Positions 5,884-13,483 of a stretch of 47,329 bases of DNA are shown one piece after another. The notes beneath the pieces are model-generated. The model searched no databases. It saw nothing but the letters and a program-made list of their open reading frames with translations, and was not told the origin of the DNA. The stretch lies in the NCBI GenBank assembly GCA_944324685.1, contig CALUXG010000049.1:1-47329 (forward strand), given 5' to 3'. This stretch comes from an uncultured Elusimicrobiales bacterium. GTDB taxonomy: Bacteria > Elusimicrobiota > Elusimicrobia > Elusimicrobiales > Elusimicrobiaceae. Every line of letters begins with the position of its first letter. Positions within the stretch are counted from its first letter, which is position 1. The position numbers and the translations under genes are program-made.

Positions 5884-6708
5884 ATGCGTAAAACCATTCA
5901 ACGTTCCGTCAGCGTCAGCGGCATAGGACTGCATACGGGTGCGCCGTCAGTGATGACTTTTCAGCCCGCCCACAGCGGTATTCATTTTATTCGCACCGAT
6001 ATGGCGCAAAGCACCCCCATTAAGGCAGACTTGGACCATGTCGGCTCTACCCTGCGCGGTACAAACTTGAAAAACGATACCGCCGAAGTATGGACAGTAG
6101 AACATGTATTGTCCGCCTTACACGCACTGGGCATTACGGACGTAACCGTAGAAATGGACGGCCCCGAACCGCCGGTAACGGACGGTTCCGCTGCAGTATA
6201 TGTCCAATGTTTGCAAGACGCCGGCTTGAAAGAGTTAGAAGGAGACTTGCCCCTCTTGCATATAAAAAATCCCATTTCCTATTCCTGCGGTTCCGTTTTT
6301 TATTCCGCAGAACCGGCCGACAGGCTAACCATCTCTTTTGTCTATGAACACAAACATCCGCTGGTAGGAAAGCAGGAATATACGGTGGAATTTAATCGGG
6401 ACAATTATTTAAGCCAAATTTCCCGGGCGCGGACTTTTGGGTTTGAAGAGGAATTGGCTTTTCTTAAAGCCCACGGCTTGGCCAAAGGAGGCAGTCTGGA
6501 AAACGCCGTCGTAGTGGGTAAAGACAAATTTTTAAACGAACTTCGCTATGCCGATGAATTGGTCCGGCATAAGATTTTAGATTTAGTCGGCGACTTCAGC
6601 CTAACGGGTAAACGATTGGACAAGCTAAAAATTGTCTGTCGCTGCGGCGGACATAAACATAATGTACTGTTCGCACGCCTGTTGCTGGCTAATTCGGAGG
6701 AGAAATGA
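5884..6708 (+). CDS. lpxC: UDP-3-O-acyl-N-acetylglucosamine deacetylase LpxC
   Basis: The zinc deacetylase that commits the cell to lipid A synthesis. 274 aa, slightly shorter than the E. coli enzyme (about 305). The zinc ligands are visible: H74 in TVEHVLSALH, and H229 with D233 in VRHKILDLVGD. The conserved SGIGLHTG and DGPEPPVTDGSA segments are present. In several phyla LpxC is fused to FabZ; here the two are separate genes that overlap by four bases (ATGA at 6705-6708), suggesting translational coupling. Confidence 0.96.
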   Translation: MRKTIQRSVSVSGIGLHTGAPSVMTFQPAHSGIHFIRTDMAQSTPIKADLDHVGSTLRGTNLKNDTAEVWTVEHVLSALHALGITDVTVEMDGPEPPVTDGSAAVYVQCLQDAGLKELEGDLPLLHIKNPISYSCGSVFYSAEPADRLTISFVYEHKHPLVGKQEYTVEFNRDNYLSQISRARTFGFEEELAFLKAHGLAKGGSLENAVVVGKDKFLNELRYADELVRHKILDLVGDFSLTGKRLDKLKIVCRCGGHKHNVLFARLLLANSEEK

Positions 6709-7196
6709 AAGAGAAGCACCCGTCTTTGGCACCCTTGCTGGACATGCCCGCGCAGAAGGTGTTCAAATTAGACGACATAAAAAATAATATCCCGCACAGA
6801 GACCCTTTTCTGTTGGTAGATGAAGTGCATGTAATAGAAGACGGAAAAACGTGCGTGGGGATTAAATACGTAAGAGGGGACGAATACTTTTTCAAAGGCC
6901 ATTTCCCGCAAAAGCCCATTATGCCGGGCGTATTGATACTGGAAAGCATTTCCCAATCGTTCGGAGGGGCCATCATGAACAGTATTGTCAAAGACGGCAA
7001 AGGTTTGCCTCTTTTCTTAGGTGTGGAAAACGCCAAATTCAGAGGAATGGTCGTACCGGGGGACACTTTGCAAATGCCCGTGCAAATTTTACGCCTTGGC
7101 AAGCTCTCGCGCATTTACGCGGAAGCGTACGTCAACGGCAAACTTTGCACGCAGGCGTACCTGACGTTCATATTAGGAGAAAACCTAAATGCCTGA
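6705..7196 (+). CDS. fabZ: 3-hydroxyacyl-[ACP] dehydratase FabZ
   Basis: Hot-dog-fold dehydratase of fatty acid elongation; it competes with LpxA for 3-hydroxyacyl-ACP, hence its place in lpx operons. 163 aa, with about 18 extra N-terminal residues against E. coli FabZ. The catalytic pair is visible as H66 (KGHFPQKPIMPG) and E80 (LILE). The start ATG overlaps the lpxC stop, and the 3' end overlaps the lpxA start by eight bases. Confidence 0.95.
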   Translation: MKEKHPSLAPLLDMPAQKVFKLDDIKNNIPHRDPFLLVDEVHVIEDGKTCVGIKYVRGDEYFFKGHFPQKPIMPGVLILESISQSFGGAIMNSIVKDGKGLPLFLGVENAKFRGMVVPGDTLQMPVQILRLGKLSRIYAEAYVNGKLCTQAYLTFILGENLNA

Positions 7197-7995
7197 CACT
7201 CATATTCATCCCACCGCCATAGTAGATCCGAGCGCCAAGATTGATCCGACCACCGTCATTGGGCCATATACGATTATCGGTCCCAACGTTACGATGGGAA
7301 GACACAACCGCATCGGACCTTTCTGTCAAATAGAAAATACGGTGATGGGAGACGACAATGAAGTTATTTCGCACGCGTCTATAGGCGTTAAACCGCAGGA
7401 CTTGTCTTACAACGGCGTGCCAAGTATGGTGGTTATGGGAAGCCGAAACAAAATACGCGAATGCGTTACCATACACCGTTCCACCAGTGCGGAAAACCCC
7501 ACCCGTTTAGGCGACGATTGCCTGCTGATGGCCAATTCGCACGTGGCGCATGATTGCCAGCTGGGCAGTCATATTATTTTAGCCAACAGCACCGGCATCG
7601 CCGGACATGTACATTTGGCAGACCGTGTGATTACTTCCGGCATGGTGGGCATACATCAGTTTGTGCGCGTAGGCAAGCTGGCTATGCTCTCCGGAGGCGC
7701 CATGGTGCCGCTGGACATTCCGCCGTTCTGCACCGCACAAGGGGAACGCGCCAGATTGGTCGGACTAAACATAGTGGGCATGCGCCGCGCCGGTATGAAA
7801 CGCGAAGAAATAACGGCCGTCAAACACGCGTTTAAGACCCTGTTCCGCTCCAAGCTTATGCTCAAGGAAGCTATAGAGCAGCTGGAAGCGCAAAACCCGC
7901 TCCCCGCGGTAAAAGAAATGTTGGAATTTTGCAAAAATTCAAAACGCGGCATTACGTCGGCCAAACGCAAAGTCAACCAAGCTGATGACGAATGA
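7189..7995 (+). CDS. lpxA: UDP-N-acetylglucosamine acyltransferase LpxA
   Basis: The first step of lipid A synthesis: 3-O-acylation of UDP-GlcNAc (or an amino-sugar variant) by hydroxyacyl-ACP. 268 aa, standard length. Hexapeptide-repeat beta-helix to about residue 190, then a helical C-terminal domain. The catalytic His is H121 in NSHVAHDCQLG. GGAG lies upstream inside fabZ. It overlaps both fabZ and lpxI, so translation is probably coupled. Whether it makes an ester or an amide bond (GlcN3N lipid A) cannot be decided here; see the Gfo/Idh gene at 11266. Confidence 0.96.
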   Translation: MPDTHIHPTAIVDPSAKIDPTTVIGPYTIIGPNVTMGRHNRIGPFCQIENTVMGDDNEVISHASIGVKPQDLSYNGVPSMVVMGSRNKIRECVTIHRSTSAENPTRLGDDCLLMANSHVAHDCQLGSHIILANSTGIAGHVHLADRVITSGMVGIHQFVRVGKLAMLSGGAMVPLDIPPFCTAQGERARLVGLNIVGMRRAGMKREEITAVKHAFKTLFRSKLMLKEAIEQLEAQNPLPAVKEMLEFCKNSKRGITSAKRKVNQADDE

Positions 7996-8812
7996 AAAAT
8001 TGGGCATTATTGCCGGAGAAGGCAAGATGCCCGTGTATATCGCCCGTCAAGCCGCACAAAAAGGTGTGCAAGTGGTTGTGGCGGGCCTAAAAGGAAACGC
8101 GCGGGAAGAGGATTTCCGCGCAGTGGGGGCCGTATATAAGGATTTTCGTTTGGGTCAAATGGGAGCCGGACTAAAATTCTTTAAGCAACACGGCGTTACA
8201 CGCGTACTGATGGCCGGACGCGTGCAACACACGTCCATATTTTCCAACCTCATGCCGGATTTGCGCGGGGCCAAATTTTTGGCCTCGCTCAAATCCATGC
8301 AAACCAAACATATTCTTTCGCGTGTTATTGAAGAATTCAAAAAAGAAAATATGGACTTTGTCAGTTCCGCGCTATATCTGGAACATTTTATGCCGCCAGC
8401 CGGCACATTAACCCGCCGTCTGCCGACTCCAGAAGAACAAAAAATCATTCCGTATGGTTTTAAGATCGCCAAAGCCATCGCCCAGTTGGACATCGGTCTT
8501 ACTTGCGTCGTCAGTCAAAACGCGGTTATAGCCGTAGAAGGCATGGAAGGCACGGACGCCTGCATACGCCGCGCCGGTGAGCTTTATCAAAAATCCGCCG
8601 AGAAGGCCAATTGTATAGCCGTGGTAAAAGTGGCGCGGCCGAACCAAGACGACCGCTTTGATTTGCCTGTCGTCGGCAAAGGCACCATACAAGCCATGAA
8701 AGACGCCGGATTCAAACTGCTGGCTTTTGAAGCGCAAAAAACGCTGGTGCTTGACTTGGAAGAAGTGGTGGAAATGGCCGATAAAAACGGCATTTGTTTA
8801 ACGGCGGTTTAA
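7985..8812 (+). CDS. lpxI: UDP-2,3-diacylglucosamine pyrophosphatase LpxI
   Basis: Cleaves UDP-2,3-diacylglucosamine to lipid X and UMP, the role that LpxH plays in enterobacteria. 275 aa, matching the LpxI (DUF1009) family. The N-terminal domain begins LGIIAGEGKMPVYIA. The C-terminal catalytic domain carries ARPNQDDRFDLPVVG, the conserved Asp-rich active-site stretch. It starts inside the last codons of lpxA. It is the last gene of the operon. No strong plus-strand terminator was seen in the 96 bases before the convergent minus-strand unit. Confidence 0.93.
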   Translation: MTNEKLGIIAGEGKMPVYIARQAAQKGVQVVVAGLKGNAREEDFRAVGAVYKDFRLGQMGAGLKFFKQHGVTRVLMAGRVQHTSIFSNLMPDLRGAKFLASLKSMQTKHILSRVIEEFKKENMDFVSSALYLEHFMPPAGTLTRRLPTPEEQKIIPYGFKIAKAIAQLDIGLTCVVSQNAVIAVEGMEGTDACIRRAGELYQKSAEKANCIAVVKVARPNQDDRFDLPVVGKGTIQAMKDAGFKLLAFEAQKTLVLDLEEVVEMADKNGICLTAV

Positions 8813-8846
8813 CCGTTACAAATGCGTAAAGAACTCGTCCTTAAAT

Positions 8847-8876
8847 AAAAAATCCATGGGAAAACTCCCCCATGGA
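8847..8876 (-). terminator. Intrinsic terminator of the ndk minus-strand operon
   Basis: An 8-bp stem (TCCATGGG at 8853-8860 with CCCATGGA at 8869-8876). In the minus direction it is followed by six T (8852-8847). Confidence 0.75.
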
Positions 8877-8908
8877 CTATACAAAGCAAATCTTTGAAGA
8901 AAAACGCT

Positions 8909-9856
8909 TTATGACTTTTTAAAATTTCGCGCCATTTCAAACGCTTCTTTCGTGTCAAACAAATAAGCCGTTGACGTTACCACTTTGCTGATGAGCATTT
9001 CTTGGCTGGATATGCTGCGCGTAACGGCATCCACCAAACGGCCCTTGTCAAACTCTTTTTCCACCGCGTCCAATACCGCGTCCGGATTTTGTGGAGCCAA
9101 GATCATTTCTATACCGCATTCAATCATACGCAATGCGGCAGCGGCTTCCTGTTTTATGCGGCTTTTGTACAAAGGCGCTCCGATGACACAACCCTTATAG
9201 TTAAGACGCTTTTTGAGCAATTCTTTGATAATCTTATCGGACATCATGGCGCGGTTGGCGGAATCTATATTGGCAAACACCATATCCGAAGGCATAATGG
9301 CATCACAGCGGCGGAACATGTGTTTATACGGCACAAATTCCGCATCCTCCATTTGCGCCAAAGTTTTCAAAATGCCGCTGACCCCGGGAAAATACTTTAC
9401 GCAGTTTAATGCCCCGCCGTTCGCCACGCCGGCCACATAATCTCCGGCCAAATGGGCTACGGCCATGGGCGTCTCACAAAAAGCGGGACTTTGGTATCCA
9501 ATATCCACTACGGGCGAAAGCAGCCAGTCTATTCCTATACTGCGCGCCATACGGGCGCTGACAAGACCTTTGCGATAGGCGCCTTCCGTATCTTGCGCGG
9601 CGCCTAACTGCGCATTGGTGGGCAGCACGGGAGCGTCCGGCACGGTCTCCGACAAATCTTCCTCTATATCCGCGCATATCAGCAAATGGTCATAAGGAGA
9701 AGCTTCCCGTACCATCTCCGAAAACCGTTTGACCTGTTCCGCTGTACCTCCGTATACGCAAAAACCGCCAACGCCGCGCGCAGCCTGTTTTTTGGCATCG
9801 GCGAACTGACTTCGTGCAAACCAAAACCCCGGAAAGACGATACGAGCGGCTTTCAT
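8909..9856 (-). CDS. GH3 (NagZ-like) fold protein, catalytic residues lost
   Basis: A 315-aa protein that aligns by eye with family 3 beta-N-acetylhexosaminidases such as NagZ (TIM barrel): MKAARIVFPGFWF, SIGIDWLLSPVVDIG, DAIMPSDMVF and IECGIEMILAPQNPDAVLDAV all have counterparts there. The active-site motifs are degenerate. The KHFPGHG acid/base motif reads KYFPGVS (154-160), and the nucleophile motif SDDL reads GAPL (226-229). It therefore probably lacks classical GH3 hydrolysis and may bind a glycan or act structurally. The start at 9856 has AGGAGG upstream; a longer open frame reaches 9934 but has no such support. No signal peptide, so it appears cytoplasmic. Last gene of the ndk operon, 19 bases after the alpha/beta-hydrolase-like gene. 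Confidence 0.75.
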   Translation of the reverse strand: MKAARIVFPGFWFARSQFADAKKQAARGVGGFCVYGGTAEQVKRFSEMVREASPYDHLLICADIEEDLSETVPDAPVLPTNAQLGAAQDTEGAYRKGLVSARMARSIGIDWLLSPVVDIGYQSPAFCETPMAVAHLAGDYVAGVANGGALNCVKYFPGVSGILKTLAQMEDAEFVPYKHMFRRCDAIMPSDMVFANIDSANRAMMSDKIIKELLKKRLNYKGCVIGAPLYKSRIKQEAAAALRMIECGIEMILAPQNPDAVLDAVEKEFDKGRLVDAVTRSISSQEMLISKVVTSTAYLFDTKEAFEMARNFKKS

Positions 9857-9875
9857 GGCTCCTCCTATACAACCG

Positions 9876-10721
9876 TTATAATAAAACGGACGGCACCAGT
9901 GCTTCTTCCGTGGCGGACGGCGCCACGTCTTCATACGAGCCGTAAGGTTCTTCTTCTACGGACAAGTCCAATAGATCCGGTTTAATGTCGGGACGCAAAG
10001 GCGTCAGCAGCCATTGTATCAGCTCAGGCATGATCCAACGGTCCAGCAACGCATGAGCGCTTTGATCATAAGCGGTGGCAAAAACGACTTTCCCCTCTCC
10101 GGAACTTAAAAACGCCACATTACGCAACAGGCTGGCTTCCAAAAAAGTTTTTTTGTCGTCCGCTGCCGCGGCAATAAATACATTTCCTTTATACACACGC
10201 AAAGCCGGTATGGTCAGCACGTCGCGAAAATTGGTTACCGGCGTAATTAACGCCACGCCGGCTACGGACGGCCATAAACTGGCCGCTTTGGCCGCCACAT
10301 TGGCCCCCATCCCCGCGCCGACAAAAACGATGTCCTCTTCCGCAAGGTTTTTCCCTTTCAGAAAAGTCATGGCGGCGTCCACGTCGCGCGTCATTTTGTT
10401 GTAATCGTTATCCACGCCCGTCTTGGCAAAATTATCATATATATTCAAGTTGGTACTCTGTCCATGGCCGCGCAAATCCAACGCCAAAAAACCGATGCCG
10501 TTATCGGCCAACCTGTCGGAAAAGGTCGTAAATTCATGTTTATTTTTTCCCACGTCATGCAAAAGCAAAACGGTTTTTTTGTCCGCTTGGGCCGGCTGGT
10601 ATACGGCGGCGATATTCCAGCCGTCCTGCGTACGCAGACCGACCGGTGTCCCTTTTACCTGAGCCGAAGACGCAGAACCAAGACAGACAATCAAAAAAGT
10701 GACAAAAAAATATTTTCTCAT
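9876..10721 (-). CDS. Secreted alpha/beta-hydrolase-fold protein lacking the nucleophile serine
   Basis: 281 aa with a signal peptide (MRKYFFVTFLIVCLGSASSA). It then shows the alpha/beta-hydrolase order: oxyanion strand VLLLHDVGKNK (51-61), ALDLRGHGQST (80-90), the nucleophile elbow, and a late His in YDQSAHALLD. At the elbow the usual GxSxG reads GAGMG (135-139), so the catalytic Ser is Gly. It is probably not a serine hydrolase. Start 10721 overlaps the ndk stop by four bases (ATGA), and GGAAGAAG lies upstream. The partner gene downstream is also catalytically degenerate. The role is unknown. Location is probably periplasmic or outer membrane. Confidence 0.75.
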   Translation of the reverse strand: MRKYFFVTFLIVCLGSASSAQVKGTPVGLRTQDGWNIAAVYQPAQADKKTVLLLHDVGKNKHEFTTFSDRLADNGIGFLALDLRGHGQSTNLNIYDNFAKTGVDNDYNKMTRDVDAAMTFLKGKNLAEEDIVFVGAGMGANVAAKAASLWPSVAGVALITPVTNFRDVLTIPALRVYKGNVFIAAAADDKKTFLEASLLRNVAFLSSGEGKVVFATAYDQSAHALLDRWIMPELIQWLLTPLRPDIKPDLLDLSVEEEPYGSYEDVAPSATEEALVPSVLL

Positions 10722-11164
10722 GGCAACACTTCTTCCGGCCGAAACCACAAAGCGATTTCCCGTTCCGCATCCTCCGCGGAACCGGAAGCGTGCACGGCGT
10801 TTTGCATAATGCCGTCCTTTATACAGCCAAACTGGCCGCGCAGCGTCCATGGTTCAGCTTTCTCGGGATTGGTGGCGCCCAAGGCGGCACGCACACGAGA
10901 CACGGCCTTCTCCCCTCTAAGCACAAAAGCATAAATACGATGATCGGGAAGACCGTTATAATCACCCATCATAAATTTGATGACGCCGTCCACAAAATCC
11001 GTCCCCTGCAAATTGGCGTAATGTTTGCGCAACAAATCTTCTGTGGCGCGCACCGCTTTGGCCGCGGCTATTTCCAGCCCCAGCGCCTCAAAGCGGGAGA
11101 GAATGATGCCCGTCAGTTTTTTTTGTATAGCGTCGGGCTTTATTAAAATCAGCGTTTGTTCCAT
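10718..11164 (-). CDS. ndk: Nucleoside diphosphate kinase
   Basis: Transfers the gamma-phosphate from NTPs to NDPs through a phospho-histidine, balancing nucleotide pools. 148 aa, normal length. Conserved LILIKPDAIQKK at the N-terminus, GATNPEKAEPWTLRGQFG, and the active-site His H125 in NAVHASGSAEDAEREI. ATG 11164 is the expected first residue (MEQTL). A second in-frame ATG lies at 11170. There is no ribosome-binding site; instead a TATAAT box ends six bases before 11164, pointing to a leaderless mRNA. First gene of a three-gene minus-strand operon, divergent from the Gfo/Idh gene. Confidence 0.96.
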   Translation of the reverse strand: MEQTLILIKPDAIQKKLTGIILSRFEALGLEIAAAKAVRATEDLLRKHYANLQGTDFVDGVIKFMMGDYNGLPDHRIYAFVLRGEKAVSRVRAALGATNPEKAEPWTLRGQFGCIKDGIMQNAVHASGSAEDAEREIALWFRPEEVLP

Positions 11165-11170
11165 ACGCAT

Positions 11171-11179
11171 ATTATAGCA
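11171..11179 (-). promoter_or_regulatory. Extended -10 promoter of ndk (leaderless)
   Basis: In the minus direction TGCTATAAT: TG at 11179-11178 and TATAAT at 11176-11171. The expected transcription start, six to eight bases on, falls on the ndk start codon. No good -35 box was found. Confidence 0.65.
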
Positions 11180-11229
11180 ATAATTCCCGCGCGCGTACGC
11201 ACAAAGTCCGCCGCACACGCCGGTCAGTA

Positions 11230-11238
11230 TGATATAAT
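11230..11238 (+). promoter_or_regulatory. Extended -10 promoter of the Gfo/Idh-lpxB-rel operon
   Basis: TGATATAAT with TATAAT at 11233-11238. It lies 28 bases before the start codon, with GAGAGG in between as ribosome-binding site. No clear -35. Divergent from the ndk promoter. Confidence 0.6.
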
Positions 11239-11265
11239 AAGATAAATACAGAGAGGTATTTCCCC

Positions 11266-12327
11266 ATGGCAGACGAAAGCACCCTGAAGTTTGGCGTTAT
11301 CGGCGCCGGCAAAATCGGCACGTTTCATACGCGCACTTTGTCCAAAATGAAAGGCGTAACGTTGGTCGGCGTATGCGATCCGGATCTTATGCGCGCCCAA
11401 AAACTGGCTTGGCAATATAATGCAACTCCATATTCCAAAATGGAAGAACTGGTGGGACAAGTGGACGCCGTCATCGTAGCGGCACCGACGCATTTGCATC
11501 ATCAAATCGGCATGTACTGCCTTGAACACGGTGTACATACTTTGGTGGAAAAACCCATAGCTACGACATTAGACCAAGCAAGAGATCTCATCCGCACCGC
11601 CAAACTGCACGGGCTGGTGCTGCAAGTGGGTCATGTGGAACGTTTTAATCCCGCCGTAGTAGAAGCCGTCAAATACATTGAAAACCCTAAATTTATTACC
11701 ATGAACCGGCTGGGGCCTTATGACGCACGCATGTCCAACATCGGCGTCGTGCTGGATTTAATGATTCATGACATTGATTTGCTGCTGACTTTGGTCCCCA
11801 GCGAAGTGCAAAGCATTGACGCCATAGGACTGAGCGTGTTTTCCCATCATGAAGACATCGCCAACGTACGCATACGTTTTGCCAACGGCACCTTGGCCGA
11901 TCTGACCGCCAGCCGTGCCAGTTTTGAACGCGCGCGCTTCATGCATTTGTTCCAGCAGGACGCTTACATTTCCGTAGATTTTATGAATGCGCGCGTTAAA
12001 ATCTACAAAAAGGAAAAACCCGTCATTGAGTCTATGCAGGACTTGACGGTTGTCTATCCGCCCGTGCAGAAACAGTTGCCCATTACGGCGGAAATTCTGC
12101 ATTTCATTGATTGCATTAAAACCAACAAGACGCCTGCCCCCAGCGGAGAAAAAGGCAGCAAAGCGTTGGAACTGGCATTAAAAATTACAGACCAGATTAA
12201 CCGTTATGACATTCCAAAAACCGGCCATCTGCACACACCCAAGCCGTTTCAGGTAGTGCATGATGTGGCCAAAGCAGCACAAATTATGCTTGACGAAACC
12301 ATAGGCCATCTGAAACGGGAAAACTAA
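11266..12327 (+). CDS. Gfo/Idh/MocA-family NAD(P)-dependent sugar oxidoreductase
   Basis: 353 aa, full length for the family. An N-terminal Rossmann fold with FGVIGAGKIGTFHTRTL is followed by the dinucleotide/substrate loop HTLVEKPIATT, whose Lys is conserved, then the C-terminal alpha/beta domain with the DLMIHDIDLLL catalytic His segment. It is directly followed by lpxB (gap of one base) and lies near lpxA. Known precedent: GnnA, a family member, oxidises UDP-GlcNAc at C3 so that GnnB can make GlcN3N for amide-linked lipid A. Related genes sit in lpx clusters of other phyla. No aminotransferase like GnnB is in this window, so the lipid A role is inference. Confidence 0.85.
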   Translation: MADESTLKFGVIGAGKIGTFHTRTLSKMKGVTLVGVCDPDLMRAQKLAWQYNATPYSKMEELVGQVDAVIVAAPTHLHHQIGMYCLEHGVHTLVEKPIATTLDQARDLIRTAKLHGLVLQVGHVERFNPAVVEAVKYIENPKFITMNRLGPYDARMSNIGVVLDLMIHDIDLLLTLVPSEVQSIDAIGLSVFSHHEDIANVRIRFANGTLADLTASRASFERARFMHLFQQDAYISVDFMNARVKIYKKEKPVIESMQDLTVVYPPVQKQLPITAEILHFIDCIKTNKTPAPSGEKGSKALELALKITDQINRYDIPKTGHLHTPKPFQVVHDVAKAAQIMLDETIGHLKREN

Positions 12328-12328
12328 T

Positions 12329-13483
12329 ATGCCCACTATTACCCCTTTATACAAAAACATACTCATCGTCGCTGGAGACGTATCCGGCGATTTACACGCC
12401 AGTGGGCTGATTCGCGAATTAAAAAAAGCCGATCCGGACGTACGCATTACCGCTGTCGGCGGCAAGCTGATGCAAAAAGAAGCGGACGTGTTTTTGTATG
12501 ACTTAGCTTCACAAGGGGCCAGCGGATTTATTGAACCGCTGAAAAAAATGCCGTTGTGGCTGGACCTGATGAAAAAAATCCGCTCCTATATGGAAACGCA
12601 AAATCCGGCCGCGCTTATCGTGGTGGATTTTTACGGATTTAACCATCAGGTACTGGGCATGGCGGCCCACCGAGGAATACCGGCTTATTATTATGTAACG
12701 CCTCAAGTGTGGGCCAGCCGGCAGTATCGCGCAAAACAACTGGCACGGCTGACTAAAAAAATGTTTGTCATTTATCCGTTTGAAAGCGCTTTTCACAAAA
12801 AATTTGGAGGCAATGCCGTCTTTTTGGGCAATCCGCTTCTGGACATCATGCCGGAGCCTGCCGCCCGTTCCACTGACGCCGCTAACGGCAAAAACAAAGC
12901 GTGGAAACTAGGCCTCCTGCCCGGCAGCCGTATGGGAGAAATCAGCCGTCTCACTCCCGTATTTTACCAAGCCTTCAAACAGGTGCTTAAAGAATTTCCA
13001 AATACGCAAGCTTATCTGTTTTTGCTTCCGGACAGAGATGAAAAAATCATTTTGGACCTGATCGAGGAAGACCCCCATCCGAATTTTCATATTGTCAAAG
13101 ATAAAGACTACACATTAAGAAGCCAGATGGATTTTTTGTTGGCCTGCTCCGGTACCGCCACGCTGGAAAATGCGTTGCTGGGCGTACCAATGGTGGTGGC
13201 GTACAAACTCTTTTGGCCGACATACCAAATAGCCAAAATGGTGATTAAAGTGCCTTACATTTCTTTAGTCAATTTGCTGGCGGGCAAACCCGTGGTCAAG
13301 GAACTTATCCAATCCGACGCCAATGCGCGTGCGCTGGCCGCCGAAACGATGGCCATGTTCCAAAACCCCGCCAAACTGGCCGCTCAAAGAGCCGAATTGC
13401 TAAAATTACGCGCGTCTTTGGGCCAAAAAGGCGTAGCCGCGCGCGCCGCTAAAGAAATATTGGCAGATATGGTCAAAAAATAA
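12329..13483 (+). CDS. lpxB: Lipid-A-disaccharide synthase LpxB
   Basis: Joins lipid X to UDP-2,3-diacylglucosamine, forming the beta-1,6 disaccharide core of lipid A. A GT19 family membrane-associated glycosyltransferase, 384 aa, standard length. Recognisable stretches include ILIVAGDVSGDLHASGLI at the N-terminus, YYVTPQVWASR, LLPGSRMGEISRL, and LLACSGTATLENALLGVPMVVAYK. It uses the product of LpxI encoded about 4 kb upstream. It lies between the Gfo/Idh gene and rel with one-base gaps. Confidence 0.96.
   Translation: MPTITPLYKNILIVAGDVSGDLHASGLIRELKKADPDVRITAVGGKLMQKEADVFLYDLASQGASGFIEPLKKMPLWLDLMKKIRSYMETQNPAALIVVDFYGFNHQVLGMAAHRGIPAYYYVTPQVWASRQYRAKQLARLTKKMFVIYPFESAFHKKFGGNAVFLGNPLLDIMPEPAARSTDAANGKNKAWKLGLLPGSRMGEISRLTPVFYQAFKQVLKEFPNTQAYLFLLPDRDEKIILDLIEEDPHPNFHIVKDKDYTLRSQMDFLLACSGTATLENALLGVPMVVAYKLFWPTYQIAKMVIKVPYISLVNLLAGKPVVKELIQSDANARALAAETMAMFQNPAKLAAQRAELLKLRASLGQKGVAARAAKEILADMVKK

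What the first reader, a model, noticed from the sequence alone, without database searches (positions are those of the whole stretch)
8909..10721. Two adjacent pseudo-enzymes in one operon
The alpha/beta-hydrolase-like protein has GAGMG where GxSxG is expected (Gly137 for Ser), and the next gene, a NagZ-like GH3 protein, has KYFPGVS and GAPL in place of KHFPGHG and SDDL. The open frames are intact and have good ribosome-binding sites, so this is not gene decay. Both may have moved to binding or regulatory roles, perhaps on the same glycan or envelope target.
Basis: partly seen in the sequence, partly recalled or inferred. Interest (0 to 1): 0.6.

Follow-up and report, generated by a model that had tools for sequence, protein, structure and literature searches.

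The report
Two conserved dead cell-wall-recycling enzymes
A gut bacterium of the phylum Elusimicrobiota, and every related genome of its genus examined, keeps two neighbouring genes for enzyme-like proteins that have lost their catalytic residues but are tightly conserved, and both trace back to an ancestral set of genes for recycling cell-wall sugars, which suggests they now work by binding rather than by cutting.

Summary
The operon is ndk–ABH–GH3 on the minus strand. ABH (281 aa, signal-peptide-like N-terminus) is an alpha/beta-hydrolase with Gly137 at the nucleophile elbow. The canonical His and the oxyanion HG are lost too. GH3 (315 aa, no signal peptide) is a NagZ-type barrel in which an 11-residue deletion removes the Asp-His acid/base loop and the nucleophile Asp is replaced. 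All 61 genomes of the genus (Candidatus Avelusimicrobium-like, Elusimicrobiaceae) carry the pair, and no sequence checked (50 distinct, plus 60 loci) has the catalytic residues back. Both genes are under purifying selection; the pseudo-GH3 changes more slowly than the intact NagZ in the same genomes. Synteny explains them: other Elusimicrobiaceae have ndk–ABH–murQ–anmK–nagZ, a peptidoglycan-recycling operon. In this genus the recycling genes sit elsewhere (ampG–murQ–anmK–nagZ in the window's genome), and a dead NagZ paralogue follows ABH. The ABH lost its Ser much earlier; a same-synteny homologue in another family keeps it. The genus's ABH ends in a conserved docking-like 12-residue tail. I infer non-catalytic binding or regulation tied to cell-wall turnover; partner and ligand are unknown.

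The parts
10718..11164 (-). ndk, nucleoside-diphosphate kinase, first gene of the operon; its stop overlaps the ABH start by 4 bases
   Evidence: NCBIfam NF001908 E 1.1e-38; neighbour in nearly all loci
9876..10721 (-). ABH: signal-peptide-bearing alpha/beta-hydrolase-fold protein without catalytic Ser, His or oxyanion HG (P0002)
   Evidence: Pfam Hydrolase_4 E 2.3e-16; alignments; AF2 pLDDT 87.4, esterase/lipase fold
10662..10721 (-). ABH signal-peptide-like N-terminus (residues 1-20)
   Evidence: present throughout the family; read by eye and hydropathy, not by a signal-peptide predictor
10305..10319 (-). ABH nucleophile elbow GAGMG (residues 135-139); Gly137 in place of Ser
   Evidence: Gly 50 of 50 in the genus
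10053..10061 (-). ABH residues 221-223 (S-A-H): canonical His column (221) lost; genus-specific His223 two residues later
9879..9920 (-). ABH conserved C-terminal tail PSATEEALVPSVLL after a variable linker of about 24 aa
   Evidence: 53 of 60 loci match S-x-T-E-[EDQ]-[AS]-L-[VIF]-P-S-[VIM]-L with free synonymous codons; one exact site in the genome
8909..9856 (-). Pseudo-GH3 (NagZ-type barrel, P0001)
   Evidence: Pfam GH3 E 4.6e-28; AF2 pLDDT 94.9, Z 38.7 to 3sql
9368..9397 (-). Pseudo-GH3 KYFPGVSGIL (residues 154-163); the acid/base loop HGxTxxDSHLA is deleted after FPG, and His of the Lys-His pair is Tyr
   Evidence: 50 of 50 in the genus; 60 of 60 loci
9170..9181 (-). Pseudo-GH3 GAPL (residues 226-229); Ala227 in place of the nucleophile Asp
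   Evidence: Phe 30, Ala 18, Pro 1, Ser 1 of 50; never Asp
8851..8878 (-). terminator-like hairpin behind the operon, between convergent lpxI and pseudo-GH3
   Evidence: 12-pair stem followed by T run; the region as a whole has no excess of such sites over shuffles

Best explanation
Both genes encode conserved non-catalytic proteins retained at the site of an ancestral peptidoglycan-recycling operon (ndk-ABH-murQ-anmK-nagZ). The pseudo-GH3 is a NagZ paralogue that lost its acid/base loop and nucleophile once, at the origin of this genus, while an intact NagZ still does the chemistry elsewhere in the genome. I think it most likely works in the cytosol as a binding or regulatory protein of the recycling pathway (muropeptide sensor, or partner of a recycling enzyme). 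The ABH is an older dead hydrolase, exported across the inner membrane, which probably acts as a scaffold or binding protein held to a partner through its conserved C-terminal tail. Shown: sequence losses, their conservation, the synteny, purifying selection, the predicted folds, the tail. Inferred: absence of activity, compartments, ligand, partner and regulatory role.
For: Loss conserved in the whole genus: 61 of 61 genomes hold the pair (in two it is cut by contig ends), 50 of 50 distinct sequences lack the residues, 60 of 60 loci from another collection lack the GH3 loop. One origin of the pseudo-GH3: 22 rows form one clade at 100/100 with a long stem of 1.22. Intact NagZ-type genes in all 62 genus genomes searched, catalytic motifs read and intact in 20 of 20. 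Purifying selection: median dN/dS 0.096 for pseudo-GH3, 0.120 for ABH; pseudo-GH3 dN is below intact NagZ dN in 168 of 190 genome pairs. Synteny: other Elusimicrobiaceae have ndk-ABH-murQ-anmK-nagZ; the window's genome has ampG-murQ-anmK-nagZ on another contig. Folds intact. ABH tail conserved at protein level.
Against: No ligand, partner or phenotype is known. Pseudo-specific conserved residues are not concentrated on the former catalytic face of the GH3 (9 of 93 versus 19 of 222 positions, p 0.83), so a preserved sugar pocket is not indicated. Of the published NagZ substrate-contact residues only Asp63, Lys154 and Phe126 remain. ndk in the same operon is a housekeeping enzyme, so operon context alone does not assign a pathway. 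The dS values behind the ratios are near saturation.
Confidence: 0.6

Rival explanations
1. Non-catalytic, but without any role in peptidoglycan recycling: the two proteins were recruited for unrelated jobs (for example periplasmic scaffold and cytosolic moonlighting protein) and only keep their old gene position.
For: murQ, anmK and the intact nagZ no longer lie beside them in this genus; ABH and pseudo-GH3 probably sit in different compartments; no enrichment of conserved residues on the old active-site face.
Against: ABH stays next to ndk, and mostly murQ, across most families of the class; the pseudo-GH3 descends from a NagZ of this family.
Confidence: 0.27
2. One or both are still enzymes with relocated catalytic residues (for ABH, Asp56, Asp189 and His223, which are nearly invariant in the genus).
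For: Asp56 and His223 50 of 50 and Asp189 48 of 50 in the genus. Same-synteny ABHs in other families carry Asp or Glu at the nucleophile position, so altered chemistry in the wider family is not excluded.
Against: No Ser, Cys, Asp or Glu at the elbow in the genus; His223 is absent in the other genera and two residues off the canonical position. In GH3 the Asp-His loop is deleted outright and the nucleophile is Phe or Ala.
Confidence: 0.1
3. Gene decay: both are pseudogenes on the way out, or assembly artefacts.
For: Loss of catalytic residues.
Against: Intact frames in dozens of independently assembled species, dN/dS about 0.1, and pseudo-GH3 slower than active NagZ.
Confidence: 0.02

Closest known systems
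NagZ, GH3 beta-N-acetylglucosaminidase of peptidoglycan recycling
   Same: GH3 barrel over the whole length (Z 38.7 to 3sql, 24% identity); 34% identity to the intact paralogue in the same genome; Asp63, Lys154 and Phe126 kept; no signal peptide
   Different: Asp-His dyad loop deleted, nucleophile Asp to Ala/Phe, His of the Lys-His pair to Tyr, Arg of the RSF motif lost, no C-terminal domain (315 versus about 470 aa)
Serine esterases/lipases of the Hydrolase_4 / feruloyl-esterase type
   Same: Alpha/beta-hydrolase core (Z about 25 at 200 aligned residues); DLRGHGxS motif; acid Asp189 kept
   Different: Nucleophile Ser, catalytic His and oxyanion HG lost; disordered linker and a conserved C-terminal tail peptide added
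The ndk-ABH-murQ-anmK-nagZ cluster of other Elusimicrobiaceae
   Same: Same first two genes, same neighbours lpxB and the Gfo/Idh oxidoreductase gene
   Different: In the window's genus murQ, anmK and intact nagZ are elsewhere, and a dead NagZ paralogue stands after ABH
Pseudoenzymes in general
   Same: Enzyme fold, catalytic residues lost, purifying selection, active paralogue retained (GH3 case)
   Different: No pseudo-NagZ was found in the open-access library: no paper held both 'NagZ' and 'pseudoenzyme'

Membership tests
GH3 beta-N-acetylglucosaminidase (NagZ) | GH3 N-terminal barrel | tested here: met
   Pfam PF00933 99 bits against cut-off 27; AF2 model and VIA-align Z 38.7
GH3 beta-N-acetylglucosaminidase (NagZ) | Catalytic nucleophile Asp | tested here: not met
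   Residue 227 is Ala here; Phe, Ala, Pro or Ser in 50 of 50; residue roles from PMC6987092
GH3 beta-N-acetylglucosaminidase (NagZ) | Asp-His acid/base dyad on the loop after KHFPG | tested here: not met
   11-residue deletion in 50 of 50 and 60 of 60 loci
GH3 beta-N-acetylglucosaminidase (NagZ) | Lys-His pair, Arg of the RSF motif and Asp that contact GlcNAc in subsite -1 | tested here: not met
   Lys154 and Asp63 kept; His to Tyr155, Arg to Pro124
GH3 beta-N-acetylglucosaminidase (NagZ) | NCBIfam equivalog cut-off (NF003740, 207 bits) | tested here: not met
   69 bits; the intact paralogue also scores below it (152 bits), so this row alone decides nothing
GH3 beta-N-acetylglucosaminidase (NagZ) | Release of GlcNAc from muropeptides | not testable with these tools
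   needs purified protein
Alpha/beta-hydrolase serine hydrolase | Alpha/beta-hydrolase core | tested here: met
   Hydrolase_4 60 bits against cut-off 27; fold search
Alpha/beta-hydrolase serine hydrolase | GxSxG nucleophile | tested here: not met
   GAGMG; Gly137 50 of 50 in the genus
Alpha/beta-hydrolase serine hydrolase | Catalytic His | tested here: not met
   canonical column is residue 221 (Thr, Ser, Lys, Ala, Met); His223 is two residues off
Alpha/beta-hydrolase serine hydrolase | Acid residue of the triad | tested here: met
   Asp189 aligns with it; Asp 48, Glu 2 of 50
Pseudoenzyme | Enzyme homologue with lost catalytic residues under purifying selection | tested here: met
Pseudoenzyme | Absence of activity | not testable with these tools
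   needs assay
Peptidoglycan-recycling operon | Linkage to murQ, anmK, nagZ | tested here: inconclusive
   met in other genera and most other families; not met in the window itself, where those genes lie on another contig

The most novel reading that the evidence does not exclude
The pseudo-GH3 is a dedicated cytosolic sensor or regulatory subunit made from NagZ: it binds imported muropeptides or a recycling enzyme and sets the rate of cell-wall recycling, while the exported dead ABH, docked through its conserved tail, reports on or organises turnover on the outer side of the inner membrane.
Probability: 0.2. Interest if true: 0.75.

Novelty: new variant of a known kind. Interest (0 to 1): 0.5.

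Why it matters
A NagZ paralogue with no catalytic machinery that changes more slowly than the active NagZ of the same cell points to a strongly selected non-catalytic role for a cell-wall-recycling fold. The stages can be read off living relatives: intact ABH beside murQ and anmK, then ABH without Ser in the ancestral recycling operon, then a dead NagZ paralogue in one genus. That makes the functions testable, and shows an unstudied cell-wall module in a phylum with few cultivated members.

Tried and rejected
Gene decay (rejected by dN/dS and breadth). His223 as the retained catalytic His (rejected: two residues off the canonical position, absent in the other genera). Preserved catalytic-face surface in pseudo-GH3 (no enrichment). 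Placing the GH3 duplication exactly: the tree puts the pseudo clade beside all other family NagZs, but a clade with the genus's own NagZ is not rejected (AU p 0.43). C-terminal tail as a sorting signal shared by many proteins: only one exact site in the genome; three two-mismatch sites against two control matches, and none is a comparable protein end. Literature: no paper in the library joins NagZ with pseudoenzyme, or Elusimicrobia with MurQ or peptidoglycan recycling. No coordinates of the models were available, so pocket geometry was not measured.

Full report
What is there. The minus strand at 11164-8909 carries ndk, an alpha/beta-hydrolase-like gene (ABH, 9876-10721) and a GH3 gene (8909-9856). 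The ABH start overlaps the ndk stop by four bases, 19 bases separate ABH from GH3, and a terminator-like hairpin lies behind GH3. The window belongs to G000, a 1.4-Mb genome whose relatives are gut bacteria of the Elusimicrobiaceae; the closest named match is Candidatus Avelusimicrobium excrementipullorum (83% for ABH).

Loss in GH3. Aligned with intact NagZ-type proteins of the same order, the 315-aa protein lacks the loop HGxTxxDSHLA after FPG, which holds the Asp-His acid/base dyad. It has Ala227 (Phe, Ala, Pro or Ser in relatives) in place of the nucleophile Asp, Tyr155 in place of the His of the Lys-His pair, and Pro124 in place of the Arg of the RSF motif (residue roles from PMC6987092). 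Asp63, Lys154 and Phe126 remain. All 50 distinct sequences of the genus agree, as do 60 loci from another collection for the missing loop. The model is a confident barrel (pLDDT 94.9) and matches GH3 beta-N-acetylglucosaminidases over its full length (Z 38.7, 2.2 A). Every one of 62 genus genomes also encodes an intact-type NagZ, with KHFPGHGxTxxDSH and TDAL in the 20 read out.

Loss in ABH. Gly137 is invariant in the genus (50 of 50). Aligned with relatives that keep a full triad, the catalytic His column falls on residue 221, which is Thr, Ser, Lys, Ala or Met. His223, invariant in the genus, is two residues later and absent in other genera. The oxyanion motif HG is HD. The acid, Asp189, remains. 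Across the class the nucleophile position is Gly in this family, Val/Ile/Trp/Leu/Asn in the sister family f2, Asp or Glu in three further families, and Ser only in one same-synteny homologue (L228, beside murQ and anmK) and in more distant homologues, most of them a separate paralogue group. On a tree built without the scored columns each of the states Ser, acid and other is one block, and Gly needs two changes. So the ABH lost its Ser long before the pseudo-GH3 appeared. The model is a lid-poor hydrolase core of the feruloyl-esterase/monoglyceride-lipase type.

Not decay. Over 190 genome pairs the median dN/dS is 0.096 for pseudo-GH3, 0.120 for ABH and 0.141 for the catalytic domain of the intact NagZ; pseudo-GH3 has the lower dN in 168 pairs. 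dS is high, so the ratios are rough, but the dN comparison does not depend on it.

Where they come from. In other genera of the family the order is ndk-ABH-murQ-anmK-nagZ (L234 shows all five genes), and in other families ndk-ABH-murQ. Products were identified with NCBIfam: MurQ, AnmK, and in the window's genome an AmpG-family permease followed by murQ, anmK and nagZ on another contig. In the window's genus only ndk-ABH stays, followed by the dead NagZ paralogue. The 22 pseudo-GH3 rows form one clade (100/100) on a long stem, as expected of one duplication, fast change and later constraint. Whether the duplication happened in the genus or earlier in the family is unresolved. Thirteen genomes of other genera of the family show no such paralogue.

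How it may work. ABH has a signal-peptide-like N-terminus throughout the family, GH3 has none, so they probably act on different sides of the inner membrane; no signal-peptide predictor was available. The ABH of this genus ends in a variable linker of about 24 residues and a 12-residue tail, S-x-T-E-[EDQ]-[AS]-L-[VIF]-P-S-[VIM]-L, in 53 of 60 loci, with free synonymous codon use: a docking peptide is the simplest reading. For pseudo-GH3 I tested whether its own conserved residues concentrate on the former catalytic face; they do not, so a preserved sugar pocket is not indicated, and binding of a protein partner is at least as likely as binding of a muropeptide. Peptidoglycan recycling by AmpG, NagZ and AnmK is described for example in Caulobacter (PMC13046382); no paper in the library reports a non-catalytic NagZ or the pathway in Elusimicrobia, as far as the searched terms reach.

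Verdict. The reading as conserved pseudoenzymes is well supported; a glycan or envelope connection is supported by history, not by direct evidence; a common target is doubtful.

Noticed in passing
L224-L230 (same-synteny ABH of other Elusimicrobiota families): ABH homologues beside ndk/murQ carry Asp or Glu at the nucleophile position (GADVG, GAEVG), some with a GHG or EHG motif at the His position: possible Asp-nucleophile hydrolases. L228 is the exception, with Ser.
   Followed up: partly
window 9879-9920: Conserved C-terminal 12-residue tail of the ABH, one exact copy in the genome.
   Followed up: partly
G000:C34 (locus L101): Operon ampG-murQ-anmK-nagZ: peptidoglycan-recycling genes together on another contig of the window's genome.
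   Followed up: yes
window 5884-13483: lpxC, fabZ, lpxA, lpxI and, beyond the ndk operon, a Gfo/Idh gene close to UDP-GlcNAc 3-dehydrogenase (NF040723, below its cut-off) next to lpxB; this may mean a lipid A with a 3-amino sugar.
   Followed up: no
L103:7006-7635: Type IV pilin-like gene ([21 protein letters not shown]) behind the pseudo-GH3 in Ca. Avelusimicrobium excrementipullorum, absent at that place in the window.
   Followed up: no
L003 / L102 (G000:C11): A third GH3 gene in the genome, 550-aa frame with a signal-peptide-like N-terminus and an intact KHFPGHGDTSVDSH motif.
   Followed up: no
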